The notes beneath the pieces were generated by a model. It saw only the letters and a program-made list of their open reading frames with translations. It had not been told where the DNA came from and did not search any database. Position numbers and translations under genes: made by a program. DNA of 64,000 bases from Microcystis wesenbergii NRERC-220 (GTDB taxonomy: Bacteria; Cyanobacteriota; Cyanobacteriia; Cyanobacteriales; Microcystaceae): NCBI RefSeq assembly GCF_032027425.1, contig NZ_JAVSJA010000001.1:3918001-3982000 (forward strand). Reading direction: 5' to 3'. Position 1 is the first letter of the stretch, and every line of letters begins with the position of its first letter. This document shows, in pieces, positions 16,756 through 42,114 of the stretch.

Positions 16756-16859
16756 CTTGGGTTTGCTGGGTAAAATGTATTCTAAGATACAGTCCTGCCG
16801 GCGAGCGAGTGGAACGAACCACAAAGACACAAAGGACACAAAGATTGATCGCTCCTATA

Positions 16860-17127
16860 TAGGGCTGGCTGAATAAATCTAAAAAACTTGTTGGATAAGG
16901 CTTTTAGACTTTTTTGACCTCAAAAAGTGCCGACCCTTGCACTGATCGGGGGTAAAATTCCGGTACTTTTTGCCTGAAAATTAGGTAACTGACTACCTCA
17001 AAATCGGTAAAACCCTACACCCCACACCCAACCCCCCCAACCCCCCCGATGTCGGGGGGGCAGGGGGGGTGGGGGGTTGGGGGGGCCACACCCTGCCCCC
17101 ACGAAAAACTTTTTGCCGCAAACCCTA
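16860..17127. mobile_element. MITE-C copy (long interior type, 268 bp)
   Basis: Ends TAGGGCTGGCTGAATAAATC and, inverted, TAGGGTTTGCGGCAAAAAG. Taken as GGG...CCC, both flanks read TATATA, a 6-bp duplication. The interior is shared, inverted, with the copy at 41354-41608, including a run of C/G tracts at 17030-17090. Confidence 0.8.
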
Positions 17128-17430: not shown

Positions 17431-18378
17431 TAGCAAAGAGCGGGATAGTTAGGACATAATAGAGAAAAAGAAATGAGGAGAAGCTTTCATGGCAGCACCC
17501 TATAGTGATGATTTAAGACAGAAAGCAGTGAGTGCCGTAGAGCGAGGGGAGAAAAAAAGCCATGTCTGTCGCACCCTCAATATTAGTCGTAATACATTAG
17601 ACCTATGGCTGAAACGGAAGAAACAAACTGGGACGGTGGCCGCTAAAACTAACTATCGTCGAGGGCCGAAGCCCAAAATTGACGATTTAGAAGCCTTTCA
17701 AAAGTTGGCCGAACAATATGGGCATTTGACCCAAGAAAAAATGGCGCAAAAATGGGCTAACCCAGTCAGTAGGATGAGAATTGGTCAAGCGCTCAAAAGA
17801 ATTGGATTTACTAGAAAAAAAAAACTTATGGCTACAGAGAAAGAGATGAAGAAGCCCGAAAAGAGTTTCTCCAAAAAATCAGAGGTTATGCCCCGGAAAG
17901 ATTTGTCTATATTGATGAAGCTGGAATAGATAACACCATCGATTATCCTTATGGATATTGTCACAAATCAGAAAGATTTGAGGCTTTAAAGTTAGGTCAC
18001 TGTAGCGAACGAGTTAGTGTGATCAGCGGTTGGTGGCGTGGTTCCACGATCGCGCCAATGGTGTTTGAGGGGTACTGTAATACAGAGTTGGTGTGTGAGT
18101 GGATAGAACAATTGCTATTACCCGAACTACTACCCGGTCAAATTATCATCATTGATAACGCCAGTTTTCATCCCAAAGAGAGAATCAAAAAATTGTTAGC
18201 TAAAGCGGGATGTGAAGTGCTATTTTTACCCGCCTATTCTCCAGACCTCAACAAAATTGAAAAGTTCTGGGCTAGATTGAAAAACTATGTTAGTCAGATT
18301 ATCAATGATAGTGAAAACCTTGTGGATGCTGTGAGTAAAGCCTTCAGGCATCTGTCCTAACTAACTCGTTCTATGCCA
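17431..18378 (+). mobile_element. IS630-family insertion sequence, 948 bp
   Basis: Imperfect 25-bp terminal repeats: TAGCAAAGAGCGGGATAGTT at the left and, inverted at the right, TGGCATAGAACGAGTTAGTT, both followed by AGGAC. TA at 17429-17430 and 18379-18380. It sits inside tnpB exactly at a TA within the WFP-SSK codons. A second copy (38178-40412) has the same ends and, after subtraction of nested insertions, 947 bp. Confidence 0.95.
17489..18360 (+). CDS. IS630 transposase, made by frameshifting at an A10 run
   Basis: Two frames. The first (17489-17929) gives an HTH region (MAAPYSDDLRQKAVSAVERG, RRGPKPKIDD). At 17815-17824 ten A residues follow CTAG; a -1 shift there joins the frame that encodes TYGYRERDEEARKEF, FVYIDEAGID (first D), IIIDNASFHP (second D) and YSPDLNKIEKFW (final E), ending at 18360. 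IS630-type elements are known to use -1 slippage on A-runs, so this copy is probably functional. The second copy in the window has nine A residues. Cytoplasmic DDE transposase acting on the 25-bp ends at TA targets. Confidence 0.88.
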
Positions 18379-19379
18379 TAGGAAACCATCTATCTATTTC
18401 GATGTAATTTCTCCCATACCAACGGCATTTATAGGCTAATTGTCGGGTTATTTCTCCCCAACTAACATCAGATATTGCCTGAGATAATTTCGGGTTTTTG
18501 ACCAGATTCTTGACGGCTAAATTCTCAACCACAATCGTTTGGTTTTCACGAACTAATTGAGTGGTTAGCTTATGTAAATGGTCTTTTCTGCTATCGGTGA
18601 TTTGAGCGTGAATTCTGGCTACTTTGATTCTTGCTTTTTCTCGATTTTTTGAGCCTTTCTGTTTTCTAGAAAGATTTTTCGCTGCTCTTCGCAACCTCTG
18701 ATAATGTTTCTTAAAATGCTTAGGATTAGATACCTTGTCTCCATCGCTGGTAATCACAAGGCTACTAATTCCTAAGTCAATTCCGATGGCTTTATCTGTT
18801 ACTGGTAGAGGCTTAATTGTTGGGTCATCAAATCTAATTGAAATATGCCAACGTCCAGAAGGATGTAATCTGACTGTTACTGTGCTTGGTTCACAGCTTT
18901 CTGGTATTTGTCTTGACCATCGAATAGGTAAAGGTTCTGTGCATTTAGCTAAATAGATTTGTTTGTCTTTAATTTTAAAAGCAGACTTAGTAAATTCGGC
19001 ACTTCCTCCCTGATGTTTTTTCTGAAAGTTGGGATACTTAGTACGACCAGCAAAGAAATTAGTGAAAGCTGTTTGTAAATGTCTTAAGCCTTGTTGTAAA
19101 GGTACACAGCTAACTTCATTGAGAAAGTCTAATTCTTCTTGCTTTTTCCACTCGGTCAACATTGAAGAAGTTTCAGTATATCCTACTCTTTCTTGTCTTT
19201 CATACCAAGCTTGTGTTCTGAGATGGAGTGCCTTATTGTAAACCAATCTTACACAGCCCAAAGTGCGCCGCAATAGCGACTCTTGTTCGGGTGTGGGGTA
19301 AAATCGAAACGAATAGGCTTTTTCCATGTCTCACATTCTAGTATATATTTTGTAAACGATGCTCATATTTAACAGTAAA

Positions 19380-20830: not shown

Positions 20831-23800
20831 TTAAATCGTGACAATCGTGACAAACCACTGGGGATGGTTGGCAAAATCCGTCACGGGTTGACCTGCGGCA
20901 TTAGTGACGCTCGCCAAAACATCGGTACCCGACAGAATTTGATTGTTGTTAAAACTGAGAGCACCAAAGCTGAGGTTTTCCAGCACGAAGAGATCTCCTT
21001 CCGTGGCGTTGAAGTCCATTACTTGGTCGGATCCATCTCCTGCCCGCAGGACAAAGTTATCTGCCCCGGTGCCACCATAGAGCAAGTCGAGCCCCTTACC
21101 ACCATCCAGGATGTCGTTACCCGCTTGCCCAAATAATTGATCAACCTCCCCATAACCGAAAAGTTGGTCATTATCCGCACCGCCTAACAGCACATCCCGT
21201 TGGGGTGAGCCAACAAGTACATCAATCCCCCCTAGTCCCTCTAGGCGATTGGTGCCGCTACTGGCTTGGGCGTTGAAATAATTATTCCCCTCCGTTCCCG
21301 CAATGCGTCCCCCAGTGGTGGGTACCTCAACGGGTTTCAGTTGGGCTAGTTGAAAGTCCAGCGCCACTAAGCCATTAACCACTTCATCGCCATCGAAGGG
21401 TCCACCATCCTGGAACTGCATACCATATAGATCGTTCAAGCCATTCCCGTCAACATCTTGCAATTTGCTGATTCCGTTAACGTTGGCAAAGGGAATGTTC
21501 ACGTAGCTATCCGTGGCAGGATTCCAAATCACAGGCACGACCAGACCATCTAAATCCAGATCGAAGGTGGCTATCCGATCCGTACTATTGGTGCTGGTGA
21601 TGTCAAACACGACGGAATTCCCCTCTGTTCCGTTAATACTTTTCCAGCGTCGGATCTGTTCATTGGGGGTTGCGACCGCCGCTTGCCAGGCATCGGGTAC
21701 TAGGTTTGGATCGCTGCTTTCCCCTTCTAGGGTAACCGCTAACCCAAATTTACGCTTGCCGACGTATTTACCGTTATCGGGAATGGGTACGGTAACGGTG
21801 AGGGTGGTTTCCCCGGGGGCAAATACTGCCTGCCCCGCAACAGGCGTATAGCGATTGCCCGCCTTGGCACCCCCATCCTGGGTCAAGTAATCTACCCAGA
21901 CGTATTTGTCTAAATCCCCTGTGCGTTGGATGGTAAATTCTACCTTTCCATCGGCTTCATTGGCTTTAGGATTAGACACAAATATGCGAGTAGGGGCATT
22001 AGGATTACTAGCAGTAGGACTAAATACCGCACTAGCAAAACTTCCAGCCGTGCTATCACCTGATTCACCGACACTATAGGATGTCATGGTTTCTGCACTA
22101 ACAGAGGCTACTTCTAAAGTCGAGTTAGGTGTGGGGATGTTTTTTGTGGGTGCATTTTTCGTGACGGTGATAACATTAGTTGTACCTGTTTGCACAATGC
22201 GATTAAGTAAAACCGTGGCGGCGGAGGTATTGGAGGTATATTGATCGAACTTCTGATTATATTGATAGACTGTACCGTTGTTCAGACTAAAATCACTACT
22301 GAGACTAAGGGTATCATTGGCATCCATTACCACCGTGACAGTGTTGTTATCAGAAAGTTGCGTGACGGTTAGAGAATTAAGGGTAAGGGTATTTGCACCA
22401 TAACCTTCGGTGACTAAAATCTCAAAATTGCGTAAACGACTACCGGGGGAAAGGGTAGTTAAATCCCAATCTTGTCCGTTATAACCCTCGAATCTTAACA
22501 CATCTGTACCAGTACCACCATCTAAACGACGGAAATAGGTATCATTGACAGTAACAAAATCATCTCCGGGTCCGCCGTAAACTACGTCAATACCGCCGTT
22601 AGTATAAATTTGATCATCTCCTTCCCCGGCTAGGAAACTTTCACCCGTTGCCGTGCCAATCATGCTATCATCGCCGATCGTCCCGGTTTGAGTTACAGTT
22701 TCATTAAAGTCACTACCAAAGATCACGTAGGTCAGGTTATCGGCATCTCCCGGAGCGCCGATGATAAAGTCGCTAAAGCCATCGCCATTTACGTCCCCAC
22801 CACCGCTGAGGGAAATTCCGGCTTGAGATGCGGGTAAACCGGTAATTACAAAGCCGCTGGTATTCGAGTTACCCGTAGAAGAATTAGATTGATTGTTACT
22901 TAAGCTGTTTAAATCAAAGGGTGACTTGGCCGAATAGGTGCTACCCCAGAGAGATTCCCCGCCACCAAAGACGACAAAGGCTGTACCATCGGTCGTGTTA
23001 CTGCTATCCAGAGCCGTATTGGGGGAGGCAATAATTAGGTCATCGTAGCCGTCGCCGTTAATATCTCCCGTTGGTGCCACTTGGGTTAATAGCAACGCTT
23101 GATTATTAGCCACATTGGTGGACGCGGTCGGAGCCGGGGTCGCCAGCACCACATCAGGGGTGGAACTGCTACTCAAGCCGCTGGTGGAGCCGTAGAAAAT
23201 TAACACTGCTCCTTGGTTATTTTCCAGCAGGTTATTATTCCAACTGCCGAGATTCGAGAAAAAGCCAGGAGCTAGGACGGCAAAATCCGCAATACCATCG
23301 CCGTTAAAATCACCGATATTTTGCAGTTGCTCACCGAATTGTTGAGTCTGATTCGGTTCGTAGATGGGATTGGAAGTAGCGATACCAATACGCGTTGTAC
23401 CCGTTGTTGCATAACCGACCAAGATACTCTCTTGGAAAAAGACGGGGGAAGGACGATCAATGGTAGTTTGGCTTGGAATGTTATTGAGGGTACTGCTCCA
23501 GGTGCTACCCCCATCGGTAGAGGTCAAATATAGAATTTGATCATTGCTGTTGCCGGAACTAAAGAAAAGGTAAAGCGTATCTCCCACCGACAAAAGACTG
23601 GGCCCCGATGACGACGTCTGACCTGAAACCTGGTTACTGCTCCAGGAGGTTCCGTTGTAGGTGGCGACATTTACATTTTTATTGCCGTTACCGACAAAGC
23701 TCACCAATAAATTATCCCCATCCACTGCTACTCCCAGGCGATTGTCAGTTTCTTGAGCATTGCCAGAGCTATTGGTGACCGTGCCATTGCTCGACCAAGT

Positions 23801-26800
23801 GCTTCCATCGCTAGAAGTGGTATAGAGAATCGTTTGGGTACTATTATTGGCGGCAAAAAAGAGGTAAAGATCCTCGTCATAAACAGCTAGGGTCGGGCCA
23901 ATGCCAGTAGGAGCCTTATTGCCGCCAGCGTTGATGGAATTAGTGCTATCAAAGGTTAAGCCTAAATCGCTACTACTGTCAGTCGTTGCCGGGGTAACAA
24001 TGACCAGGTTATTTGTGGCGGTGAAAGCAAGGTAAAGTGTGTTATTAAAAACCGCTAGAGAAGCTTGGCTCACACTTTCAAAACTACTCCCTAAGCTGGT
24101 CAGCCCTTCCCAGTTATAACCATCTGCACTTCTTTGAATATAGAAGTTGTAAGTAAAAATACCAGTGATAGGGTTTACCTCGGTAGTGTTATAGACCATA
24201 TATAAATAGCCGTTAAACACCGCAAAGGAAGGGGAAAATACAGGAGTGTCGTCAAGACTATTGAAGCTCCAGTCACTATTATTTAATGTTCCTGAAATTG
24301 CAGCAGAAGGAGGCGTGATATTGGTGCTATTACTACTAGCGGAACCAGCAGAACCATTACCTAAATAAACTGTAGCCTGTCCATTCCCAGTGGCATTAGG
24401 ACTGATCACATTCCCATTGGGATCGCCACCACCAATATCGCCAAAACCATCGCCATTCACATCGCCGATGCCATTAAAGACGGTATTACTATTAGCGCTA
24501 AAGGTGACAGAACTATTCAGAGCGCCGCTACTGTTACCTTTGTAAAGTGTCTGCCCACCATTAGAGGATGACAATAACAAATCATCATAGCCATCGCCGT
24601 TGTAGTCCCCTACAGCAACAAAATCCCCTATCTCCGTCAGGCTAGTATTACTACTGGTGCTCAGGCTTAAGGTTTGTTGGGGGCCTAGGTTGGTGTTACC
24701 TAAAATCAGATAGAAATTATTATTCTGATCTACCACCCCAAAATCCGCTAATCCGTCGCCGTTAAAGTCGCCTGCGGACGCAACGCTTTGAATCAAGCCG
24801 CTATTGGAAATATTAATAATTAACTCATCGGTTCCCGCCGCTGCGTCCAGTAAATTTTGGGTACTAGAGCCAAAAGTGACAACAGCGCCATTGCCGTTAA
24901 TGGTGCCTCCGGCCAGCACATCGGCAAAACCATCCCCATTGATGTCCCCCAACATAACGACATCATTACCTGCTCCTAGCAGAATTTGGCTACCGCTAAG
25001 GGCGGTGACATATACGTCAGCCTCGGAGTCGGTGCCAGTATAGCCTAGATACAATCGACCCCCTAAAATAGCTGGAGCGGGGAGATAATTACTGGTTTGG
25101 TTATCAATCTCGTTTAACCCAGACCAACTGGTTCCATTGCTAGAAGTCAGATAGTAAAGATCGCTACTGCTATTGCTATATGTAAAGTAAAGTTGACTGC
25201 CGTCATTGGTAATGCCAGGCGCTGTACTGGCGCTAGTTGCGCCGCTCAGTTCCGATACGCTCCAAGTTAGGTTCGTTAAATTTGAACCGCTGGTGTTAGT
25301 GACGTAATAGTTATTACCGCTACCTACCGTTCCACCCCGATAGGCCAGGTAAAGCGTTTCGCCCATGACGGTGGCGCTGACGGCTTGGCTGGCAGTTTGA
25401 TTACCACCACCCGGATTGGGGACTGTGTAATCCGTTGACCAGGAAGCTCCTGATTGGGGATTATCAGAGTAAACGTAAAGAATATCGCTATTAGACTCGG
25501 TGCTGACAAAAAAGGCCATCAACTGGCCTTGATATTCCACCAGGGAAACTCCAGCACTGGAAAATTGATCAATGCTGTATTGGCTACTCCAACTCTGCCC
25601 GTTATCAGTACTGGAAGTGATATTAATTTGTTTGTTCGTCCCCACATAAGCCAGATAAAGCGTCCCCTTATAAAAAGCTAAGGATGGGGACTGACTGGTA
25701 GTTATACCACTGGGGAGTTCTACTGCGCTTGTCCAGGTTTGCCCGGCATCACTGCTAGTGGTCAGATAAATTTGATTACCCCCCTTTTCCACATAGGCGA
25801 GGTAAAAAGTGCCGTTATTGTTGATAAAGGCAGGGGCGGCGCTCGATTCATCTCCGAGGTTATAAATTTGGGTTCCTACCGCTACGGAGTATAAGTCGCC
25901 ATCAATAACAAAACCGTTATCACCGGAAATATCGGCTAATTTAATACTGCCATCGTCCGCTAACCAGGGATGACCATAAATAGTGTAGAGTTGTCCCGCA
26001 TTAGGCGCACTAATCATTAAATCATCCACCTTATCACCGTTCACATCCCCAATACCACTAGCGGCGGCTCCCACTAATTGATAAGGTTGATCTCCATTGA
26101 GTAAGAAGGTGGTTTTACTATCAGTAGCGGTAATGTTGAGGTCAAAAATAGTACCAATGTCACCGAGATCAAGCGGTCCGAAAAGCACATAACCTTGACC
26201 AGTGCCGTTTGCACCCTGAGGTGCGGTAATCAAAAAGTCTGCATAACCATCGTCATTAACATCGCCAGGAGAAGTAATAACTGCCCCTGTTTGACTGGAA
26301 AGAAGCCCTCCGACAATACCTAGATTAGATACATTGCCAAGATTTTGATAATTACTGTTGGCACTTACTCCTCCTTTAAGAACATAAACGACACCGTTAT
26401 TATTACTTGCTCCCGGGGCAGAAATGGCTAAATCATTGATACTATCACCATCTAAGTCACTACTATTTAAGGCACTTCCCGCATTGATGTTATTAGGTGT
26501 ACCATTACTGGAGGGAAGATTGGGACCGGTATAACTCACATATTGCGTTAATGTTGTTGTGCCATTACTTTGATAGACATAGACTGCCCCCAATTCGGCT
26601 TGGGTGGTGGAGGGATAACTATTATTTTGATTGGTATTACTAGGAAGTCCGTCCAAACCAGTCCATTGATTAGTAACCGTTCCTTGAAAGTTGATCGCAC
26701 CGATAATCAAATCATCGGAAAATTGATTATTAGTAAAGGTAGTGGAAGTAGGTGTACGAGAGGAAACCGCAAGGCTATAACCTGCTAACTCTCCCTGGTT

Positions 26801-29800
26801 AGTGGAATTGTAAATAGTTGAATAGGTTGAACTACCATCGAAGGCAACATACACCGCCCCATTGCCATTATTTGCCCCCGGCGCACCGATGGCAATATCA
26901 AATTTAGTACCACTGGCGTAAGTGCCATTAGATTGAGCGTTACTGTTAAAGTTACCCACCGCCACGGAATAACCAAAGGCGATATTGGTAGAACTGGGGG
27001 CATTAATTACATAACCTTGACTGCTAGTTAAATTCGTGACATCAATGCTGGTTCCTTCTAAATTATTAGAGCCATAAACCACATATACTGCATTCGCATT
27101 GGGATCACCAATGACTAAATCCTGATAACCATCACCATTGACATCTCCTGTGGCCATACTGAAAGGAAAATCGCCGTTTGCTTGTCCAGTATCACTTAAA
27201 CCTGTAATCAAGACACCGTTAGGATTGCCAGTTAAATCGGTAGTAGTTAAGGGATTGGTTTCACTGTTTAATAATACTGCTTGACCACCAAAGAGAATTT
27301 GGATTGTCCCTCCTGATTGTGGGACGCCTGAGGTGTTAGTATAGCCCCGATTTCCCACTGCTACATCTGATTTACCATCGTTGTTAAAGTCAGCATACAG
27401 AATTGAATAACCGATACTAGGATTATTGGTGTTGATAATAAAACCACTATCGATTAAAGCAAGGGAAGAATCATTGGCTTCGGTGACTGTGGCTGTTCCT
27501 AATACTTGGTTAGAGTTGATGGTTGTGGGTTGGCTGGTGACATCTCCAGGAGTGATAGATTGGGGAGTATTACCATTGATAGAATAGTTAAAGTTAGAGT
27601 AATTATTACCTCCTCCATCGATAAATAAATCTAAGTCCACATTAGAGGACAAGATTGTATATTCAAAACTACCATCAGGATTAACAGGATTAAGCAGTTT
27701 ATCCCCTTGCACTACGGCTAGTTGATAACCAGTGGTATTGCCGACACTCCATGTGATAGTATCGCCATTACTATTAGTAGCAGTGACAACAATAGAAGTT
27801 ATTTTTTTACCTGTAGTCTGATTCGATAAATTGAGGGGTAAATAAATATCAGGATTACCGTTAGGATTTACATAGCCACTGCTGTTAGCGGTAGTGTAAG
27901 AAGTCACATCCCATTCAGGTTTATTAGCATTGGATAGTTGAGTGGCGATGGGCTCGTAGGTAGGATCAATAACACTAGGCACACTCCAGGAACTACCATT
28001 ATAAGTTACATAGTTGGTATTTGGTCCGGCAGGTAAAGGAGCGATATATTGAGAATTATATTTATTGCCTATTTGACTGGTATTAAATAGGATTTGAGAA
28101 ATTTGAGAAGGGGTTAAATTGCCAAAATCCGATATATTACCAGTTTCGCTATAGGTTAAGGCTTGACTATAAAAAGCCACCTCATCTAAATAGACGGCAC
28201 TGGTATTAGAAGCACTAGCAAGGCTGACAGTGGCACTGTTCGGGAGAGTTAAGGCTAAATTCTCTTGAGAGACCGAGGGTTGACCATTAATATAAAGGGT
28301 AGCAGTATCGGTTTCTCCGTCATAACTGGCAACCACATAATACCATTGGTTAGCGCTAGGAGTAAAACCACCGGAGCTTAGGATATTTCCATTGAGATTG
28401 AAAGATAACTCTGTATTGGTGAGACTTATACTCACCAGGTCACTAACTGATAGTAATTCTATCGAACTTGAGGATAAAGAGGGTGCTTTAAACCAAAATT
28501 CTAAGCTAAAAGAAATACCAGAGAAGGGAATGGCGACGGAAGTGGCACTATCGCCTGCATTAAACAATACGGCAGGATTGGGATCACCCTGATTAGTGCT
28601 AGTATTTTCTAACGCACCTACCTGATTAAATGTTACTGAACCACTATAAGTACCATTACCGCCAGCCCCGTAAATACCTTCATTGACAAGGGTTGTACCA
28701 CTGGTTTCCGCTAGACGATAGTAAAGTAGAGGAGATTCTTCTTGGGTTAATTGACTATAGGATGTAGCCTGAGTTTCTGTCCATAAAACTGTTGGCTTAC
28801 CGTTAATGGTGACAATACTTAACTCTGTTGAGGGATCAGGATTTGCGTCAGTGTAGAGAATTTCAGGACTACTCCAACTTGCCTCCCCACTATTATAAGT
28901 AAGGCTTGACCAGTAAATGTTTGATTCGCCCTTATTATTATAGTTAATCCATGCGGCCATCAATTCGTTATTCGGTCCAGAGCCGATGACGATTTTGCCT
29001 TCCGAGCCTTCTTGTTGTGCTATGGCAGCGGCTACCGTCCAACTACCTCCACTATAGATAGAGTAATAAACGTCAGATTGATTGAAACTTTCATTAATTA
29101 AGGTAGTTTCATTGTCGGTATAAAATTCGCCAGGTACAAGGTTCGCATTTATATCACTAGCATCAGCATTAGACCAGACTAACACGGTAATATCATTAGT
29201 GGAGTCATAGGCCCCTACGGGATTAAAGTTAAAACCGCCTGTCCCCGGAATACTGCTAATACTGCTAACTAGGTTAGTATCAGCAGAATTGAGTAGAGCG
29301 TATTTAATAACAGTAGTTGGAGTGCTAGGGGATGTAATAACGGGTTGATTGCTAAAATTAGCCACACTACCGTTAGTACCAGATAAAGAATTACCCGTAT
29401 AACTTACTGTAACGATGTCTCCATTACCGATGAGATTTACACCCTCTGGGGGTTGAACCGTTAAAATAACCGTATTGCCAGTAGTATTTACGTTCCCAAG
29501 TATCGTAAATACCTGTCCATTACTTTCTACAGTAAAGTCGCTATTGGTAACACCATTATCGGTTAAACTTTGATCGAAAACGAGGGTAATTTGATTACTG
29601 GTATTATTTTCAACGATCGCACCCGCCCCCAATATAACGGGGGGATTGCTACTATTAGTGGTGTTAGTCAGGGCAAAATTACTAAATTCATTAACCCAAA
29701 GGGTCGTATTAGTAAAGGAATTATCAATGTATAGATTAGTATTATTGCTGGTGGGATTTGAAAGATTGTAACTAAGATTTAACTGTGTGTCTCCACTCAC

Positions 29801-32800
29801 CGCGGTACCAAGAGTTAAAGTCAGACTATTATCATTAACTTTGACATTGGTTACGGTATAGGTATTACCATCACTATCGGTGACGATAAATTGATTAGCA
29901 GTAGGAACATCAGTGCCATTGCCTAGATCGTCGATAAAATTCAGGGTGACAAGTTCCCCGTTAACAAAACCGGAGATCGGTTCTAGAGGCGGAACCTCCG
30001 CAACCCATGCCAATAAAGGAGATGAACCACCAGAAATAATGAAGGGCGCATTATCTTGTCCTAAATCCGCTTCAATATTTGCTATGAGGGAGGAAGTTGT
30101 AACAGCAGGCGGGGTAATCCCTGTTACTAAGGAGCTAATATTTTGACTGTTGTAAGTTATGCTAACAATTTGATCGGGAGATACACTCTGATTGAGACTC
30201 AAAAAGACATTATTCCCTGTGAGGGAAACAGAAACACTCTGTACCTGGACATCATTCACCGTTGTACCATCAGAGTTGGTAACGGTGACGGTATAATCTG
30301 CAACAGTGTCGGAGAATGTCAGATTAGAATTGTTGTTTGAAATGAAGACAGATGACTGAGAGACTTGGGCAGATACGCCATTTTGAATGGTAAAAGATTC
30401 GATCAAATCTCCGTTACTATCTTCTAAGGGGTTACTACCTAAAGAACTACTATTGTTATAACTAATGGTGACATTTTGTAGAGACTGATTCGTAACCGAT
30501 GAGGCAAATGTTAATAACACACCATTATTAGTTACCTTCGCATCGGTAATGGATAAGACCGTACTTCCTGATTTGACGGTAAATCGAGCAAGATCAGGAC
30601 TAACCGTCGTATCTAACGGAGTGTTAAAAGCGAGAAGGAGGGTGGGATTAATATAGTTTTGACTGTTACCACTGGTGGGATTGTATTGATAAGCAAGGGA
30701 GTTAGGAGTATTATTAGTAACGCCTAAATCAGAGATATTTTCGATCGTATTGCCATCCGTATCCTTGATCCCCTCATTATTAACAAAATTGAGAGAGACA
30801 TTATTGCTAGTGGGTGTAGGATTATCAGAACTGGTGTAATCGAGATTTTCCGAGGTAGGAATGGCATTTTCTAACTGTAAAATAACGAGATTAGAACTCG
30901 CACCTGCTACCACACCAAAAACAGGAACATTAGTAATATTGCCATTAATATCCGTCACGCTGACAGTAAAGTCACTCGCGGAGGGAAGTGCAGCTAAATT
31001 TGTGCCGAAGTCCACTGTAATCAAAGAACCAGCTAAACTGGCGCTAGTGGTAGAAGCCATTAACGCCAAAGAAGCCGAACTTGCTACTGAGGAGGAGTCA
31101 CTGTCACTACTAGAGTTTTTATTGCCGTCAAAAACATTCCAAGACCAACCCGGATTGAAATTAAAACCTAATCCTAAAGGACCTATCTTCACCTCTAAAC
31201 CAACGGGAAAAGTTAGGGAGATAGTATTATCTGTATTTCCAATACCGAAGTTAAAAGCAGTTTCGACACCACCGTTTATATCTGCACTCAGAATTGGTAC
31301 ATGGGGAATTTGAGCCTTACCGACTACTCCTGTAGTCAACACAGGAAAACTAATCGAGCCTTGGTTATCTAATCCTTGGGTCGTGCCATTGATAAAAGCG
31401 GCGAAGCTTGCCCCTACAGCAATCGCTATATCGGCGGCCAGAATTCCAGCACCGCTACCCTCAGTTGTTCCCTCTTTCGCTAGATTCATCAGTAGTATAT
31501 AGGCGTCGGCACCAGCACCTGAACCTATCGCTTTTCCCAAATCACCTAGTCCTGCCAACAAAGTTTGAGGCGAATAGGTTTGTCCAGGAATAGGTGTCCC
31601 CAAAAGGTTAAAATTAATACCGACACTACCCGTGGCATCTAAGGTAAAAAATCCTGCGGTTTCCTCTGCTGGTATAATCGGAAACTTTACGGAAGCGGTT
31701 ATGCCTAAAACGTTATCTATATCAAGCAAATCATAGGGTGAATTGTTAGAAAAGCTATACTTAGAATCTAGGTCAAATCCAAAAGTAATAGGACTTTTTC
31801 CCCGTATTTTTGTTGCAGTAGAGGCTGATGGTATATTAGTATCATCGGCAAATAAATTACCAAAGATATCACTACCTTGATTATCAACGGTGGGCTCAGA
31901 TCCGGTTGTATTTTTCCAAGGGCTTTTTAACTCTTTGGGGGATTCCCATTCTAGCTGTGCATTTGTTTGTAAAAAAATTGATGGTTCTCCACCAAAAGTT
32001 GTCCCGCCTGACAATGTACCTACAAGCTCGAAATTTTCCAAAAAGGGTTTGATGATCGATCGAAGAAAGCCACTGCTAGGCACACTGTTCATCAATTCCC
32101 AATCTTTTAACAAACTACTAGCAAAGTATAATTGGGCATTCCATGAGCCGAAAGGTTGTTGTGCTTGTTCTTCTTCTGTTTCGTCGCTACTAATACTTAA
32201 ACTATTGGCTTTTGTGGCTGATTGTCCCGCTGGAGTTGTGCTTTGAGCATTGCTTAAAACCCCCGGATTAACGACACCATTATTCGTTAATTGAGGGGAA
32301 TAGGGGGCAGTAGGTATTACATTACTGGTACTTGTAGAGAATTGACTACTGCTAACGCTAAAGGTTTGAGTGTAAAAGTCGGTATCTTCTTTGATGCTGA
32401 GATTCGCAACATTATCAAAGTTAACCTTTGAACCGATAACGATTACTTCGCCGCTATCATTAACTGTAACGGTAGGTTCTAAATCACCTACTTGATCTGA
32501 GGTGAGAGTTTGAGGAGTATCTAACCATTGTAAATCGGCATTCTCGTCGTATTGGGCGGCGGTATAGAAAAAATCGCTATCATTCAGATTTCCCTGTTGC
32601 CATACCACTGCTAATCCCGGATTGCTACTATCAATCAGCTGACCACTAGCGACGAGATTAAGACTGGTGACAGGTTCAGTACCCGTAAAAGCAATAGCTT
32701 CGGCATTTTTCCAAGTTTCCGAATTATTGTCATAGACTGCGTGCCAAATATTGCCATTATCAGCCCAAACGATATGAGTAACCCCTGTGGTAGAGTCAGT

Positions 32801-32839
32801 GGTGATAGCCGAAAGACTGGAAGCGAGATTAATAGACAT
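20831..32839 (-). CDS. Giant secreted mosaic protein (SwmB-like/LamG/FG-GAP/Asp-box/Calx-beta/RTX), 4002 aa
   Basis: A single open frame of 4002 codons. Approximate order: an N-terminal part with beta-propeller-like strands (1-250). A region of repeats of the type DFTVSVTDINGN ... SSNLVILQLENAIPTS (about 610-1180) resembles the SwmB repeat of Synechococcus. A LamG/concanavalin-like domain follows (about 1370-1565, SLEFWFKAP, YYVVASYDGETDTATLYING). FG-GAP repeats with DxNxDG calcium loops lie at about 1810-2280, 2615-2815 and 3170-3375 (GDVNGDGYQDLVIGDP). Between them are Asp-box (sialidase-like) stretches at about 2330-2600 and 2850-3150 (SSDAGQTWTS, STDNGQSWSS). An RTX block is at about 3390-3430, a Calx-beta domain at about 3620-3700, and RTX nonapeptides end the protein (GGADNDQLFG, GQAGNDILDGG) with a type I secretion-like C-terminus. 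No signal peptide, as expected for type I export. Likely a cell-surface or released adhesin; true function unknown. The ATG at 32839 has no Shine-Dalgarno. Confidence 0.85.
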   Translation of the reverse strand: MSINLASSLSAITTDSTTGVTHIVWADNGNIWHAVYDNNSETWKNAEAIAFTGTEPVTSLNLVASGQLIDSSNPGLAVVWQQGNLNDSDFFYTAAQYDENADLQWLDTPQTLTSDQVGDLEPTVTVNDSGEVIVIGSKVNFDNVANLSIKEDTDFYTQTFSVSSSQFSTSTSNVIPTAPYSPQLTNNGVVNPGVLSNAQSTTPAGQSATKANSLSISSDETEEEQAQQPFGSWNAQLYFASSLLKDWELMNSVPSSGFLRSIIKPFLENFELVGTLSGGTTFGGEPSIFLQTNAQLEWESPKELKSPWKNTTGSEPTVDNQGSDIFGNLFADDTNIPSASTATKIRGKSPITFGFDLDSKYSFSNNSPYDLLDIDNVLGITASVKFPIIPAEETAGFFTLDATGSVGINFNLLGTPIPGQTYSPQTLLAGLGDLGKAIGSGAGADAYILLMNLAKEGTTEGSGAGILAADIAIAVGASFAAFINGTTQGLDNQGSISFPVLTTGVVGKAQIPHVPILSADINGGVETAFNFGIGNTDNTISLTFPVGLEVKIGPLGLGFNFNPGWSWNVFDGNKNSSSDSDSSSVASSASLALMASTTSASLAGSLITVDFGTNLAALPSASDFTVSVTDINGNITNVPVFGVVAGASSNLVILQLENAIPTSENLDYTSSDNPTPTSNNVSLNFVNNEGIKDTDGNTIENISDLGVTNNTPNSLAYQYNPTSGNSQNYINPTLLLAFNTPLDTTVSPDLARFTVKSGSTVLSITDAKVTNNGVLLTFASSVTNQSLQNVTISYNNSSSLGSNPLEDSNGDLIESFTIQNGVSAQVSQSSVFISNNNSNLTFSDTVADYTVTVTNSDGTTVNDVQVQSVSVSLTGNNVFLSLNQSVSPDQIVSITYNSQNISSLVTGITPPAVTTSSLIANIEADLGQDNAPFIISGGSSPLLAWVAEVPPLEPISGFVNGELVTLNFIDDLGNGTDVPTANQFIVTDSDGNTYTVTNVKVNDNSLTLTLGTAVSGDTQLNLSYNLSNPTSNNTNLYIDNSFTNTTLWVNEFSNFALTNTTNSSNPPVILGAGAIVENNTSNQITLVFDQSLTDNGVTNSDFTVESNGQVFTILGNVNTTGNTVILTVQPPEGVNLIGNGDIVTVSYTGNSLSGTNGSVANFSNQPVITSPSTPTTVIKYALLNSADTNLVSSISSIPGTGGFNFNPVGAYDSTNDITVLVWSNADASDINANLVPGEFYTDNETTLINESFNQSDVYYSIYSGGSWTVAAAIAQQEGSEGKIVIGSGPNNELMAAWINYNNKGESNIYWSSLTYNSGEASWSSPEILYTDANPDPSTELSIVTINGKPTVLWTETQATSYSQLTQEESPLLYYRLAETSGTTLVNEGIYGAGGNGTYSGSVTFNQVGALENTSTNQGDPNPAVLFNAGDSATSVAIPFSGISFSLEFWFKAPSLSSSSIELLSVSDLVSISLTNTELSFNLNGNILSSGGFTPSANQWYYVVASYDGETDTATLYINGQPSVSQENLALTLPNSATVSLASASNTSAVYLDEVAFYSQALTYSETGNISDFGNLTPSQISQILFNTSQIGNKYNSQYIAPLPAGPNTNYVTYNGSSWSVPSVIDPTYEPIATQLSNANKPEWDVTSYTTANSSGYVNPNGNPDIYLPLNLSNQTTGKKITSIVVTATNSNGDTITWSVGNTTGYQLAVVQGDKLLNPVNPDGSFEYTILSSNVDLDLFIDGGGNNYSNFNYSINGNTPQSITPGDVTSQPTTINSNQVLGTATVTEANDSSLALIDSGFIINTNNPSIGYSILYADFNNDGKSDVAVGNRGYTNTSGVPQSGGTIQILFGGQAVLLNSETNPLTTTDLTGNPNGVLITGLSDTGQANGDFPFSMATGDVNGDGYQDLVIGDPNANAVYVVYGSNNLEGTSIDVTNLTSSQGYVINAPSSTNIAFGYSVAVGNFNSNAQSNGTYASGTKFDIAIGAPGANNGNGAVYVAFDGSSTYSTIYNSTNQGELAGYSLAVSSRTPTSTTFTNNQFSDDLIIGAINFQGTVTNQWTGLDGLPSNTNQNNSYPSTTQAELGAVYVYQSNGTTTLTQYVSYTGPNLPSSNGTPNNINAGSALNSSDLDGDSINDLAISAPGASNNNGVVYVLKGGVSANSNYQNLGNVSNLGIVGGLLSSQTGAVITSPGDVNDDGYADFLITAPQGANGTGQGYVLFGPLDLGDIGTIFDLNITATDSKTTFLLNGDQPYQLVGAAASGIGDVNGDKVDDLMISAPNAGQLYTIYGHPWLADDGSIKLADISGDNGFVIDGDLYSVAVGTQIYNLGDESSAAPAFINNNGTFYLAYVEKGGNQIYLTTSSDAGQTWTSAVELPSGITTSQSPSLAFYKGTLYLAYVGTNKQINITSSTDNGQSWSSQYSIDQFSSAGVSLVEYQGQLMAFFVSTESNSDILYVYSDNPQSGASWSTDYTVPNPGGGNQTASQAVSATVMGETLYLAYRGGTVGSGNNYYVTNTSGSNLTNLTWSVSELSGATSASTAPGITNDGSQLYFTYSNSSSDLYYLTSSNGTSWSGLNEIDNQTSNYLPAPAILGGRLYLGYTGTDSEADVYVTALSGSQILLGAGNDVVMLGDINGDGFADVLAGGTINGNGAVVTFGSSTQNLLDAAAGTDELIINISNSGLIQSVASAGDFNGDGLADFGVVDQNNNFYLILGNTNLGPQQTLSLSTSSNTSLTEIGDFVAVGDYNGDGYDDLLLSSSNGGQTLYKGNSSGALNSSVTFSANSNTVFNGIGDVNGDGFGDIGGGDPNGNVISPNATGNGQATVYLGNGSAGSASSNSTNITPPSAAISGTLNNSDWSFNSLDDTPVFSPSFAVFNGYLYMVYNTTEVNPITGIFTYNFYIQRSADGYNWEGLTSLGSSFESVSQASLAVFNNTLYLAFTATNNLVIVTPATTDSSSDLGLTFDSTNSINAGGNKAPTGIGPTLAVYDEDLYLFFAANNSTQTILYTTSSDGSTWSSNGTVTNSSGNAQETDNRLGVAVDGDNLLVSFVGNGNKNVNVATYNGTSWSSNQVSGQTSSSGPSLLSVGDTLYLFFSSGNSNDQILYLTSTDGGSTWSSTLNNIPSQTTIDRPSPVFFQESILVGYATTGTTRIGIATSNPIYEPNQTQQFGEQLQNIGDFNGDGIADFAVLAPGFFSNLGSWNNNLLENNQGAVLIFYGSTSGLSSSSTPDVVLATPAPTASTNVANNQALLLTQVAPTGDINGDGYDDLIIASPNTALDSSNTTDGTAFVVFGGGESLWGSTYSAKSPFDLNSLSNNQSNSSTGNSNTSGFVITGLPASQAGISLSGGGDVNGDGFSDFIIGAPGDADNLTYVIFGSDFNETVTQTGTIGDDSMIGTATGESFLAGEGDDQIYTNGGIDVVYGGPGDDFVTVNDTYFRRLDGGTGTDVLRFEGYNGQDWDLTTLSPGSRLRNFEILVTEGYGANTLTLNSLTVTQLSDNNTVTVVMDANDTLSLSSDFSLNNGTVYQYNQKFDQYTSNTSAATVLLNRIVQTGTTNVITVTKNAPTKNIPTPNSTLEVASVSAETMTSYSVGESGDSTAGSFASAVFSPTASNPNAPTRIFVSNPKANEADGKVEFTIQRTGDLDKYVWVDYLTQDGGAKAGNRYTPVAGQAVFAPGETTLTVTVPIPDNGKYVGKRKFGLAVTLEGESSDPNLVPDAWQAAVATPNEQIRRWKSINGTEGNSVVFDITSTNSTDRIATFDLDLDGLVVPVIWNPATDSYVNIPFANVNGISKLQDVDGNGLNDLYGMQFQDGGPFDGDEVVNGLVALDFQLAQLKPVEVPTTGGRIAGTEGNNYFNAQASSGTNRLEGLGGIDVLVGSPQRDVLLGGADNDQLFGYGEVDQLFGQAGNDILDGGKGLDLLYGGTGADNFVLRAGDGSDQVMDFNATEGDLFVLENLSFGALSFNNNQILSGTDVLASVTNAAGQPVTDFANHPQWFVTIVTI

Positions 32840-37666: not shown

Positions 37667-37812
37667 TGATGATCGATCGAAGAAAGCCACTTTTATGGAC
37701 ACTGTGCATCAATTCCCAATCTTCTAATAAACTACTAGCAAAGAAGAGTTGAGCATTCCATGAGCCGAAAGGTTGTTGTGCCTGTTCTTCTCCTGTTTCG
37801 TCGCTACTAATA

Positions 37813-37914
37813 AGTACCTAGGCAAAATTAATTACACATATCTAACCCCGCTCTTGCCTCTTGCCTCTTGCCTCTTGCCCATCTTCACTAGGAAATTAAT
37901 TTTGCACGACTACT
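37813..37914 (+). mobile_element. MITE-B copy 2 (102 bp) inside the giant-gene fragment
   Basis: TA at 37811-37812 and 37915-37916. The intact counterpart at 32181-32205 reads ...CTACTAATACTTAAAC..., so the single TA target and the duplication are confirmed directly. Confidence 0.95.
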
Positions 37915-38610
37915 TACTTAAACTATTGGCTTCTGTGGCTGATTGTACCGATGGAGTTGTGCTTTGAGCATTGCTTAGAACCCCCAGATTAACGACACCA
38001 TTATTCGTTAATTGAGGGGAATAGGGGGCAGTAGGTATTACATTACTGGTACTTGTAGAGAATTGACTACTGCTAACGCTAAAGGTTTGAGTGTAAAAGT
38101 CGGTATCTTCTTTGATACTGAGATTCGCCATGTTATCAAAGTTAACCTTTGAACCGATAACGATTACTTCGCCGCTATGGCATAGAACGAGTTAGTTAGG
38201 ACAGATGCCTGAAGGCTTTACTCACAGCATCCACAAGGTTTTCACTATCATTGATAATCTGACTAACATAGTTTTTCAATCTAGCCCAGAACTTTTCAAT
38301 TTTGTTGATATCTGGAGAATAGGCGGGTAAAAATAGCACTTCACATCCCGCTTTAGCTAACAATTTTTTGATTCTCTCTTTGGGATGAAAACTGGCGTTA
38401 TCAATGATGATAATTTGACCGGGTAGTAGTTCGGGTAATAGCAATTGTTCTATCCACTCACACACCAACTCTGTATTACAGTACCCCTCAAACACCATTG
38501 GCGCGATCGTGGAACCACGCCACCAACCGCTGATCACACTAACTCTTTCGCTACAGTGACCTAACTTTAAAGCCTCAAATCTTTCTGATTTGTGACAATA
38601 TCCATAAGGG

Positions 38611-39785
38611 CAGAAGTGTTGAACGTTGAGAAAAGTCAGAAAAAAAATGCTATTATAGATAGAATCTAGACAACTTATTCCCCTCACAATAGGGAGTTTG
38701 CCCTGATGACGAATTTTTCAAAACTCATAAAAGAGCTTCTCAAACCACTGCCTAAAAATGACTACCCCGCTTTAGATACTTTTACATTTTTGTCCTGTTG
38801 GATTGGTTTTGCTTTAGATAAAAGCATCGTCAGTATGAGGGACTTATGCAGTAGAATGGTACTTCAAGGAATTAATGTAAATTTATCCACATTTTCTAAG
38901 GCAAGCAAAATTAGAGAAACAAGTCCATTTGAGAAAGTCATTGTCGAATTAAATAAGCGTTTAGTTGCCAAAAAAGGAATAGAGAATGCGCGAGCTTTAT
39001 TTCCTATTGACTCAACAATAATTAGCTTAACCAGTAAATTACTATGGTCCCAGGGATGGCATCAAGTAAAACTATTCTCTGGTCTTAATAGTATCACAAC
39101 AGAGGTGGTCGGAATACTCATCCATTTTGGTCAAGGTCATGACTCAAAAGAAGGAGGAAAAACGATAGAAGCAATTCCTGTAAATGGAGTTGGAGCAATG
39201 GATAGAGGATTTGCGTCTAATCAAAGAATCACCGAATTATTAGAGAGTAGTGACAAGCATTTTGTCTTGAGAGTGAAAAATAATATTAGCCTAGAGATGC
39301 TCGAAAATGGCAAGTGTAAACTCGGAAAAGATAAAAGACAAATAGAAGTAAGAGTAGTCGCTTTTTGCGACCTAGAAAGTCAAACAGAATTTCGGCTGGC
39401 GACAGATTTACCTCTAGAAGGAGAAGGAGCAGTTAGTAATGAAGAAGTTGCCGAAATTTACATCCAAAGATGGCAAATAGAACTGCTGTGGAAATTTTTA
39501 AAAATGCATCTAAAGTTGGATAATCTAATCACTAAAAACGAGAACGGAATCCGCCTACATATCTATAGTTGCATTATCGCTTATCTGATTCTACAGCTAA
39601 TAGATATTGAAGAAGGATTTGGGAAAAGCTTATTAGACAAACTGCGCTATTTACAGAGTTTCATGTGTCAACATATTAGCTATGTACACTGGTTCCGGAG
39701 GATTGTCTATTCAATTTAAAATTTGATGTTATAGGGGTATTATGCTTGTCAATGTAAAGTTTTATTACAGGATTCAACGTTTCTG
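38611..39785 (+). mobile_element. IS4-family insertion sequence, 1175 bp
   Basis: Ends CAGAAGTGTTGAACGTTG and, inverted, CAGAAACGTTGAATCCTG. Exact 9-bp duplication CCATAAGGG at 38602-38610 and 39786-39794, inside the IS630 transposase gene. Contains one transposase gene. Confidence 0.93.
38706..39719 (+). CDS. IS4-family transposase
   Basis: 337 residues. First catalytic Asp in LFPIDSTIISL (about residue 100), second in GAMDRGFASN (about 160), and the Y-(2)-R-(3)-E-(6)-K signature in YIQRWQIELLWKFLK, which defines the IS4 family. The protein is short for the family but the three catalytic sites are in order and the frame is uninterrupted, so it could be active. The gene fills most of the element; it starts 95 bp from the left end and ends 66 bp from the right end. 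Confidence 0.92.
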   Translation: MTNFSKLIKELLKPLPKNDYPALDTFTFLSCWIGFALDKSIVSMRDLCSRMVLQGINVNLSTFSKASKIRETSPFEKVIVELNKRLVAKKGIENARALFPIDSTIISLTSKLLWSQGWHQVKLFSGLNSITTEVVGILIHFGQGHDSKEGGKTIEAIPVNGVGAMDRGFASNQRITELLESSDKHFVLRVKNNISLEMLENGKCKLGKDKRQIEVRVVAFCDLESQTEFRLATDLPLEGEGAVSNEEVAEIYIQRWQIELLWKFLKMHLKLDNLITKNENGIRLHIYSCIIAYLILQLIDIEEGFGKSLLDKLRYLQSFMCQHISYVHWFRRIVYSI

Positions 39786-39809
39786 CCATAAGGGTAATCG
39801 ATGGTGTTA

Positions 39810-39911
39810 AGTAGTCGTGCAAAATTAATTTCCTAGTGAAGATAGGCAAGAGGCAAGAGTGCCTCTTGCAAGAGGTGTTTAGATATGTGTAATTAATTTT
39901 GCTTAGGTACT
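39810..39911 (-). mobile_element. MITE-B copy 3 (102 bp) inside the IS630 transposase gene
   Basis: TA at 39808-39809 and 39912-39913. The uninterrupted site is in the intact IS630 copy at 17925-17935 (GGAATAGATAACACC). The inside differs by a swap in the TTGCCTC repeat. Confidence 0.95.
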
Positions 39912-40420
39912 TATCTATTCCAGCTTCATCAATATAGACAAATCTTTCCGGGGCATAACCTCTGATTTTTTGGAGAAACTCTTTTCGGGCTTCTTCATCT
40001 CTTTCTCTGTAGCCATAAGTTTTTTTTTCTAGTAAATCCAATTCTTTTGAGGGCTTGACCAATTCTCATCCTACTGACTGGGTTAGCCCATTTTTGGGCC
40101 ATTTTTTCTTGGGTCAAATGCCCATATTGTTCGGCCAACTTTTGAAAGGCTTCTAAATCGTCAATTTGGGGCTTCGGCCCTCGACGATAGTTAGTTTTAG
40201 CGGCCACCGTCCCAGTTTGTTTCTTCCGTTTCAGCCAGATGTCTAATGTATTACGACTAATATTGAGGGTGCGACAGACATGGCTTTTTTTCTCCCCTCG
40301 CTCTACGGCACTCACTGCTTTCTGTCTTAAATCATCACTATAGGGTGCTGCCATGAAAGCTTCTCCTCATTTCTTTTTCTCTATTATGTCCTAACTATCC
40401 CGCTCTTTGCTATATCAGTA

Positions 40421-40546
40421 AGCTGCCCGCGCATTTAAATTGCTTGTTGAGACGAGGCAAGAGGCACTCTTGCAAGAGGCAACAGTAAAGGGATTGGGGG
40501 AGATTCGGCTAATCTTAAGAATAAGCGCTTTAAATGCGTCTTAGCT
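40421..40546 (+). mobile_element. MITE-A copy 4 (126 bp), 4 bp from the IS630 end
   Basis: TA at 40419-40420 and 40547-40548. The intact site in the giant gene (32461-32462) shows the IS630 and MITE-A targets are TA dinucleotides separated by four bases. Provides codons KLRRI and a stop to the truncated ORF. Confidence 0.95.
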
Positions 40547-40925
40547 TAACTGTAACGGTAGGTTCTAAATCACCCACTTGATCAGAGGTGAGAGTTTGAG
40601 GAGTATCTAACCATTGTAAATCAGCATTCTCGTCGTATTGGGCGGCGGTATAGAAAAAATCGCTATCATTCAGATTTCCCTGTTGCCATACCACTGCTAA
40701 CCCCGGATTGCTACTATCAATCAGCTGACCACTAGCGACGAGATTAAGACTGGTGACAGGTTCAGTACCCGTAAAAGCAATAGCTTCGGCATTTTTCCAA
40801 GTTTCCGAATTATTGTCATAGACTGTGTGCCAAATATTGCCATTATCAGCCCAAACGATATGAGTAACCCCTGTGGTAGAGTCAGTGGTGATAGCCGAAA
40901 GACTGGAAGCGAGATTAATAGACAT

Positions 40926-41288
40926 TTCAATAACTCCTTTAAATTCAAAGTTTGCCGAAAAATTGGTGGTGATTCGCTAGTAGTGATGGAGGCTTAATCC
41001 TTTGCTTTGCTGTGCATTGTAGTCATGGATAAAATACCAATTAATTAACTCGCACTATGGCATCCATAAATAAATATGTATAATATAGTGCTTCTCACGC
41101 CGGTGTGACACATTTAAACCTTGGCTGATTAAGCTTTTCACCATCAATAATGTACCTCTTGCCAACAGGAAACGCGATAAATTAAACTCTACTTATTGAG
41201 CCGGTAAAACTGGAAAAGCATCTAGAATTATAGATTTTATTAAGAATTGAGTCGCCTGAAACCCTGATGAGATTGTCGTTTATTCTCA
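40926..41288. other. Region upstream of the giant-gene fragment
   Basis: Holds the AAAGGAG ribosome binding site of the fragment (about 40932-40938) and otherwise no ORF or recognisable element that I can support. It has no resemblance to the region upstream of the full giant gene. Confidence 0.4.
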
Positions 41289-41353: not shown

Positions 41354-41608
41354 TAGGGTTTGCGGCAAAAAGTTTTTCGTGGGGGCAGGGTGTGGCCCCC
41401 CCAACCCCCCCCTGCCCCCCCGACATCAGGGGGGTTGGGGGGGTGGGGTGTAGGGTTTTACCGATTTTGAGGTAGTCAGTTACCTAATTTTCAGGCAAAA
41501 AGTACCGGAATTTTACCCCCGATCAGTGCAAGGGTCGGCACTTTTTGAGGTCAAAAAAGTCTAAAAGTCTTATCCAACAAGGTTTTTAGATTTATTCAGC
41601 AAGCTCTA
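41354..41608. mobile_element. MITE-C copy (long interior type, 255 bp)
   Basis: Ends TAGGGTTTGCGGCAAAAAG and, inverted, TAGAGCTTGCTGAATAAATC. Taken as GGGTTTGC...GCAAGCTC, both sides read TAACTA, a 6-bp duplication. The interior is the inverse of the copy at 16860. Confidence 0.8.
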
Positions 41609-41880
41609 ACTAGATCGACCTGGTTTAACCTGGTCGATCCCCGTCAAATCGCCTCCGCGAGCGTTTTCTAACACGGTCAGTCCGACCGCGTTTTTTCCTC
41701 GGTTCTCGATTACCTTCGCTGATGCCGTATCTCTTGGTTCGATGTGACCGCAAGAATCACACCGGTGAACTCTTTCCGATAACGCTTTTTTGCCGGTAAT
41801 CGCGCCACAATTAGGACACTCTTGCGAAGTTCCGTTTTTATCGACTTTAAGATAATATTTTCCCCTCGCTCCATTGAGAT
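41606..41880 (-). pseudogene. tnpB: 3' remnant of a second tnpB
   Basis: About 90 codons: LNGARGKYYLKVDKNGTSQE, the zinc ribbon CPNCGAITGKKAL ... HRCDSCGHIEPRD, and the last RuvC Asp in RDTASAKVIENRG, ending GRSS. Everything upstream is lost at the MITE-C boundary at 41881. The frame continues by chance through the MITE. Different sequence from the tnpB at 17-19 kb, so it is another subfamily. Confidence 0.85.
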
Positions 41881-42114
41881 AGGGCTTGCTGAATAATGGT
41901 AAAACCTTTTGAAAATAAGGCTTTTGACCTGTTAAAATCCGATGTTCATGCTGCGAAAATAGGATTGGGACCTTCAAAAACCTGGCATTATCCTTCTTGT
42001 GGTACATAAACTGGTACAAAAAAAAGAGGGCAACAAAGCCTGAAACTCCTGACTCGGAGACTCGGAGACTCCTGACTCCTAACCCCACCAACAAACTTTT
42101 TGCCGCAAACCCTA
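41880..42114. mobile_element. MITE-C copy (short interior type) abutting the terB-like gene
   Basis: Starts TAGGGCTTGCTGAATAATGG and ends with the inverse of TAGGGTTTGCGGCAAAAAG. Interior as in the copy at 10843. The flanks (TTGAGATA and TAATTACT) do not match, so this copy has been rearranged or has lost one flank. Confidence 0.7.

What the first reader, a model, noticed from the sequence alone, without database searches (positions are those of the whole stretch)
37667..40945. Nested insertions in a duplicated 5' fragment of the giant gene can be reconstructed base by base
The fragment (37667-40925) is almost identical to the start of the giant gene (32050-32839). IS630 inserted at TA 38176, MITE-A at a TA only 4 bp away, and MITE-B at another TA. 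Inside IS630 lie an IS4 element (9-bp CCATAAGGG) and another MITE-B. Every target is present uninterrupted elsewhere in the window. The lengths add up: 2235 minus 1184 minus 104 gives 947, against 948 for the intact IS630, the difference being one A in the slippage run. The order follows: duplication before all insertions, and IS630 before IS4 and the inner MITE-B.
Basis: seen in the sequence. Interest (0 to 1): 0.75.

Follow-up and report, generated by a model that had tools for sequence, protein, structure and literature searches.

The report
Nested jumping genes move as unit
A mobile DNA element in what is probably a Microcystis cyanobacterium, broken by two other mobile elements, need not have been broken step by step at this spot: the same nest sits at four places in the genome and seems to have jumped as a ready-made package.

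Summary
The structure is real. 37667-40925 copies the first 263 codons of the giant gene (20831-32839, - strand) and carries MITE-B, an IS630 with IS4 and a second MITE-B inside it, and MITE-A. The arithmetic holds: 947+104+1184 = 2235.

The history needs correcting. The whole 2235-bp IS630::MITE-B::IS4 nest occurs at four places: 0 differences over 2235 bp, TA at 8 of 8 ends, unrelated flanks; two sister copies have exact in-genome empty sites with a single TA. So the nest is itself a mobile unit and most likely landed here ready-made. "Duplication before all insertions" is supported for the units that landed, not for IS4 and the inner MITE-B. MITE-B most likely preceded IS4. The exact IS4 target is absent from the window's IS630 (8 of 9 bases) but present in three uninterrupted copies elsewhere.

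The genome holds further TA-flanked IS630 nests (1211-5170 bp), some made by IS630 inserting into IS630. The 8 identical MITE-B copies found all lie in nests, and no close relative of the MITE-B-type transposase was found here. Two nest junctions were found only in this genome, of 12 searched.

The parts
20831..32839 (-). Giant gene, 4002 aa: FG-GAP, SWM, BNR-like, Calx-beta and RTX-type nonapeptide repeats; counterpart of the duplicated 5' fragment
   Evidence: NCBIfam 'RTX family hemolysin' 41.9 bits against a cut-off of 1000, so not called a toxin
37667..40925 (-). Duplicated 5' fragment of the giant gene (about 263 codons), interrupted three times
   Evidence: also present, shorter, in G002
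37813..37914 (.). Outer MITE-B, TA target 37811-37812 / 37915-37916; 89-90% identical to the inner copy
38178..40412 (-). 2235-bp nest IS630::MITE-B::IS4, one of four identical copies
38611..39785 (+). IS4-family element, 1175 bp, 337-aa transposase frame, 9-bp repeat CCATAAGGG at 38602-38610 and 39786-39794; carries the rarer allele 950T
39810..39911 (+). Inner MITE-B at IS630 TA 501-502
40421..40546 (+). MITE-A, TA target 40419-40420 / 40547-40548
17431..18378 (+). Uninterrupted 948-bp IS630 of the same kind, TA-flanked; transposase in two reading frames around an A run (frames read on an identical copy, L036)

Best explanation
An IS630-family element received a MITE-B at TA 501-502 and then an IS4 (allele 950T) at CCATAAGGG. 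The resulting 2235-bp nest has no whole IS630 transposase of its own but keeps both IS630 ends, and is moved in trans by transposase from intact IS630 copies. It was copied as one unit to at least three new TA sites; one of its four copies lies in the old duplicated 5' fragment of the giant gene, most likely as an arrival. The outer MITE-B and MITE-A were separate TA insertions there. Shown: four identical copies, TA at every end, unrelated flanks, in-genome empty sites for two sister copies plus the giant gene as counterpart here. Well supported: MITE-B before IS4. Inferred: trans mobilisation; that this locus was a landing site and not the place of assembly. Not resolved: the order of outer MITE-B, nest and MITE-A.
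For: Four 2235-bp copies (window, L095, L096, L097), 0 differences, TA at 8 of 8 ends, different flanks. Uninterrupted single-TA counterparts with 100% identical flanks: L043 3254-3255 for L096 (800 bp left, 107 bp right) and L084 696-697 for L097 (130 bp left, 381 bp right). IS630|IS4 junction: 4 places in this genome, none in the other 11 of 12 searched. The four share 5 substitutions and one A deletion in the left IS630 part and 3 in 517-948 of the right part. MITE-B is joined to the same TA in 13 loci (left junction; right junction also intact in 10), with IS4 at 516-524 in either orientation, inside MITE-B, absent, or not known where the unit is cut. 19 full-length IS630 copies were listed, 10 of them identical to the query and 4 of the 19 lying in 1211-bp units; intact ones are possible transposase donors.
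Against: IS630 copies exchange sequence: all four combinations occur at sites 173/245, three in full-length copies and the fourth in nest halves, so spread of the inserts by conversion between resident IS630s is possible. Perfect identity could partly be an assembly or polishing effect. The fourth site (L095) gave no counterpart when one of its flanks was searched in 12 genomes. There is no direct evidence of transposition.
Confidence: 0.77

Rival explanations
1. One reading: IS630 entered the fragment first, then MITE-B and IS4 entered it, and this finished nest was the source of the other three copies.
For: Nothing in the four identical copies shows which is oldest. My own rough odds, with equal weight per place: about 1/4 that this locus is the source for IS4, about 1/13 for MITE-B (13 loci).
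Against: MITE-B is joined to the same TA in 13 loci with several IS630 haplotypes and IS4 states, so IS630::MITE-B existed apart from this locus.
Confidence: 0.13
2. Plain IS630 copies sat at four sites and were turned into nests by gene conversion from one nest.
For: Mosaic IS630 haplotypes; the 1211-bp form has different SNP haplotypes in its copies.
Against: Needs two events per site and a tract covering both inserts and the SNPs from 173 to 817 at each site, leaving no mosaic among the four; two sites show an empty TA counterpart with no IS630.
Confidence: 0.08
3. Assembly artefact: repeats joined or homogenised wrongly.
For: 0 differences over 2235 bp in four copies; repeats of this length are hard for short reads (general knowledge).
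Against: Each copy has its own flanks with exact TA, other nests do differ (29 differences between L098 and L099 or L100), and the assembly has two contigs.
Confidence: 0.02

Closest known systems
IS630 family (NCBIfam NF033545; kinship to Tc1/mariner is recalled)
   Same: DDE transposase, here split over two frames; TA target duplication; imperfect terminal repeats read by eye
   Different: Here interrupted and self-nested derivatives are themselves amplified
Mobile insertion cassettes and transporter ISs (passages of PMC3129680)
   Same: Units without their own transposase activated by an intact relative, or ISs carrying passengers
   Different: The passengers here are other mobile elements (IS4, MITE-B, an ISL3-like insert), themselves inserted, rather than ordinary genes
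Intercalated IS clusters (passages of PMC3129680)
   Same: One IS interrupted by others
   Different: In the passages seen they are something to be resolved into its ISs; here the nest has multiplied as a unit
IS630 expansion in Microcystis aeruginosa (passages of PMC4072520) and Microcystis MITEs (passages of PMC11448079)
   Same: M. aeruginosa is listed there as an outlier genome for IS630; an ISL3/MITE pair with ends GGCTCTTCG is described, and the ISL3-like insert in the nests here has those ends
   Different: None of the passages seen describes nests moving as units

Membership tests
IS630 family | IS630-type DDE transposase | tested here: met
   NF033545 119.5 bits (cut-off 100) for the second frame of L048; 43.4 bits, below the cut-off, for the first frame alone of L036; PF13358 DDE_3 in the nest's right part
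IS630 family | TA target duplication | tested here: met
   20 of 20 full-length rows (19 places) and 8 of 8 nest ends
IS4 family | IS4-type transposase and a target repeat, here 9 bp | tested here: met
   NF033592 150.7 bits (cut-off 115); 24 of 24 copies with a perfect 9-bp repeat
MITE (MITE-B) | Short, no transposase, ends shared with an autonomous element | tested here: met
   102 bp; both ends match, with about one difference in each roughly 22-base end, an element in G001 and G010; its 332-aa transposase scores 204.2 bits for IS630 (cut-off 100)
MITE (MITE-A) | Ends shared with an autonomous element | not tested
   TA target and about 40 copies among the 40 of 207 candidates scored; no partner was looked for
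Mobile insertion cassette / transporter IS | Moved by transposase of an intact relative, carrying other DNA | tested here: inconclusive
   Copy pattern, TA and empty sites agree; mobilisation itself was not tested
RTX toxin (giant gene) | Score above the curated cut-off | tested here: not met
   41.9 bits against 1000; the best stretch is 3844-3965, where the nonapeptide repeats lie

The most novel reading that the evidence does not exclude
In this Microcystis lineage IS630 builds its own larger transposons: it inserts into its own copies (TA 27, 686, 861), new units form from the left end of one copy and the right end of another, and the growing nests (1211 to 5170 bp) keep moving and carry foreign elements. 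MITE-B, for which no close autonomous partner was found in this genome, has been multiplied as a passenger of IS630.
Probability: 0.5. Interest if true: 0.62.

Novelty: new variant of a known kind. Interest (0 to 1): 0.5.

Why it matters
Nested insertions are easily read as a local time series and the interrupted element as dead. Here the interrupted element has kept multiplying with its passengers, so relative dates read from a nest can belong to another place. It also gives a concrete, testable way for orphan MITEs to spread and for a simple IS to grow into a larger transposon.

Tried and rejected
Independent insertion at the four sites: rejected, same MITE-B and IS4 positions, same SNPs, 0 differences. 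Segmental duplication: rejected, unrelated flanks meet the nest exactly at TA. Inversion of IS4 in place as cause of the two orientations at one target: less likely than independent hits, because the two orientations carry different IS4 alleles at both targets (950T and 950G). A clean empty fragment in a relative: not found; G002 has the fragment but with a deletion around the outer MITE-B target and a truncation nine bases before the IS630 target, and G011, assigned to the same species, has no match to the neighbouring kinase region. Relatives of the giant gene's N-terminus in the named genome collection: none confirmed. The nest in plasmid records: no match. The NIES-843 genome paper is not held, so its IS and MITE catalogue was not seen. 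On checking, I corrected my first Fisher test, in which I had wrongly dropped two genuine differences in the middle part; the corrected test is.

Full report
WHAT IS THERE. The window is C1:3918001-3982000 of a 4.68-Mb, two-contig genome. A MITE-A pattern search over the named genome collection returned six loci, all labelled Microcystis; records of the window's own genome may be left out there, so the genus is inferred. The giant gene (20831-32839, 4002 aa) carries FG-GAP, SWM, BNR-like, Calx-beta and RTX-type nonapeptide repeats; the NCBIfam RTX-toxin model is far below its cut-off (41.9 against 1000), so I treat it as a repeat-rich protein of unknown role, by inference at the surface or secreted. 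Its first 263 codons are repeated at 37667-40925, and the similarity ends at the start codon.

CHECK OF THE OBSERVATION. The five inserted pieces and their targets are as described. 947 + 104 + 1184 = 2235. Against the IS630 at 17431-18378, the interrupted one has 9 substitutions and lacks one A of the A run. The IS4 target is not exact in the window's IS630 (one of nine bases differs), but L051, L052 and L053, uninterrupted IS630 copies elsewhere in the genome, carry 516C and so the exact CCATAAGGG. One of the four spacer bases between the IS630 and MITE-A targets differs from the giant gene.

THE NEST IS MOBILE AS A UNIT. A search of the genome with IS630 gave 83 matches; 40 of 79 first-look candidates were scored, so counts are lower bounds. 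Four places carry the whole 2235-bp nest: the window, L095, L096 and L097. They are identical over 2235 bp, all eight ends abut TA, and the adjoining flanks are unrelated. Two have an uninterrupted counterpart elsewhere in the genome with 100% identical flanks and a single TA: L043 for L096 (800 and 107 bp; a transposase-like frame, judged by eye, not scored) and L084 for L097 (130 and 381 bp). For the window copy the giant gene plays that role. For L095 there is none: a 561-bp stretch of one of its flanks matched only this genome among 12. The IS630|IS4 junction occurs 4 times here and in none of the other 11 genomes. Eight of those eleven are drafts of 140 to 340 contigs and could miss it; three (G001, G002, G010) are in one or two contigs.

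ORDER. The IS630-to-MITE-B junction at the same TA (501-502, one of 62 TAs) occurs in 13 distinct loci among those examined: window, L095-L100, L102, L103, L105, L106, L107, L137 (L054, L056, L061, L063 and L064 are the same places again); the other junction is also intact in 10 of them. In these, IS4 is at 516-524 in one orientation (the four nests), at 516-524 in the other (L137), inside MITE-B in either orientation (L102, L106), or absent (L098-L100); L103, L105 and L107 are cut within MITE-B. So MITE-B most likely came before IS4. The two orientations at each target carry different IS4 alleles (950T or 950G), so IS4 probably hit each 9-bp target twice. The nest's IS4 allele 950T is in 6 of 24 full-length copies: the four nests, L102 and L185.

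IS630 INTO IS630. Other TA-flanked units: 1211 bp (IS630 plus an extra right end from 686; 4 copies, L108-L111), 2236 bp (L106), 3020 bp (L101), 3986 bp (3 copies, L098-L100) and 5170 bp (L102). The 3986-bp unit reads as an outer IS630::MITE-B split at TA 861, holding an IS630 with an ISL3-like insert (178.5 bits for ISL3, just under the cut-off of 180) and two further right ends from TA 686, and ending in the inverted first 28 bp of another IS630. L102 has the same arrangement plus IS4 in MITE-B (3986 + 1184 = 5170). L101 has the arrangement of the 3986-bp unit without its first 966 bp, as if an inner left end had been used. L099 and L100 are identical; L098 differs from them at 29 positions, 27 of them in the ISL3-like insert. 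The 948|686 junction occurs 23 times at 13 places here and in none of the other 11 genomes. L103, L104, L105, L107, L137 and L202 show cut or rearranged forms; L104 also reaches the edge of the fetched stretch. That end-swapping made these units is inference.

MITE-B AS PASSENGER. The 8 MITE-B copies that are 100% identical to the inner one all lie in IS630 nests, one of them in a cut nest (L137); only 40 of 298 first-look candidates were scored, so more could exist. An IS630-family element (204.2 bits, cut-off 100) with a 332-aa transposase whose two ends match MITE-B was read in two loci of G001 and one of G010. With the last 83 aa of that transposase, G001 has 14 matches (10 with a 357-codon open frame), G010 four (one of them only 52% identical), G002 and G011 one short frame each, and this genome none at 1e-25; its best match by E-value is 33% identical.

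DUPLICATION. G002 has the fragment behind the same kinase gene, cut off nine bases before the IS630 target by a remnant of the MITE-B-type element and deleted around the outer MITE-B target. The duplication is therefore most likely older than the split of the two genomes, and the insertions are either younger or were lost in G002. In the left and middle parts the fragment differs more from the own giant gene (15 + 9 = 24) than the two giant genes differ from each other (7 + 3 = 10); in the right part it is the other way round (5 against 17) (three columns at the MITE-A edge dropped; Fisher p = 0.0008, and 0.004 with them kept). This suggests conversion in the right part, or a foreign stretch in the G002 gene, which has a cluster of private changes there.

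RESULTS AGAINST MY READING. IS630 copies are mosaic (four-gamete pattern at 173/245), and the 1211-bp copies share a structure but not SNP haplotypes, so conversion among copies probably happens. No copy can be named as the source. Identity over repeats may partly be polishing.

LITERATURE. Searches answered. Passages only were seen of PMC10969869, PMC11448079, PMC3129680, PMC2246112, PMC4072520 and PMC9208149. IS clusters, MICs, transporter ISs and an IS630 expansion in M. aeruginosa are in print; I saw no description of IS630 nests amplified as units in these listings and passages, and the library lacks most subscription journals.

VERDICT. The anatomy is right, the chronology is only partly supported. 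The element is of known kinds; its amplification as a nest is the part worth a second look.

Noticed in passing
window 40926 onward; G002 C1:2163073-2172000: Within the 27 kb of G002 compared, synteny stops at the fragment: giant gene, regulator, kinase and fragment are shared; to the right only short repeats match.
   Followed up: partly
40965-41040 and 41082-41186: Two further short repeats next to the fragment, with many matches across the genomes of the genus.
   Followed up: no
L137 1209-2383; L102 4543-5717; L106 1194-2368: IS4 is found at the same two 9-bp targets in IS630::MITE-B in both orientations with different alleles, which hints at target preference.
   Followed up: partly
17815-17824; L048: The A run between the two transposase frames of IS630 varies in length (one A fewer in L048 and in the four nests); in both forms checked the frames stay apart, so a frameshift seems needed.
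   Followed up: partly
L136 2041-4165: An IS630 sits inside an IS4 copy, the reverse of the nest in the window.
   Followed up: no
16855-17127 and 41354-41613; 18371-19327 and 41606-42094: Inverted repeats, partly G+C-rich, and OrfB/TnpB-like frames on both sides of the region.
   Followed up: no
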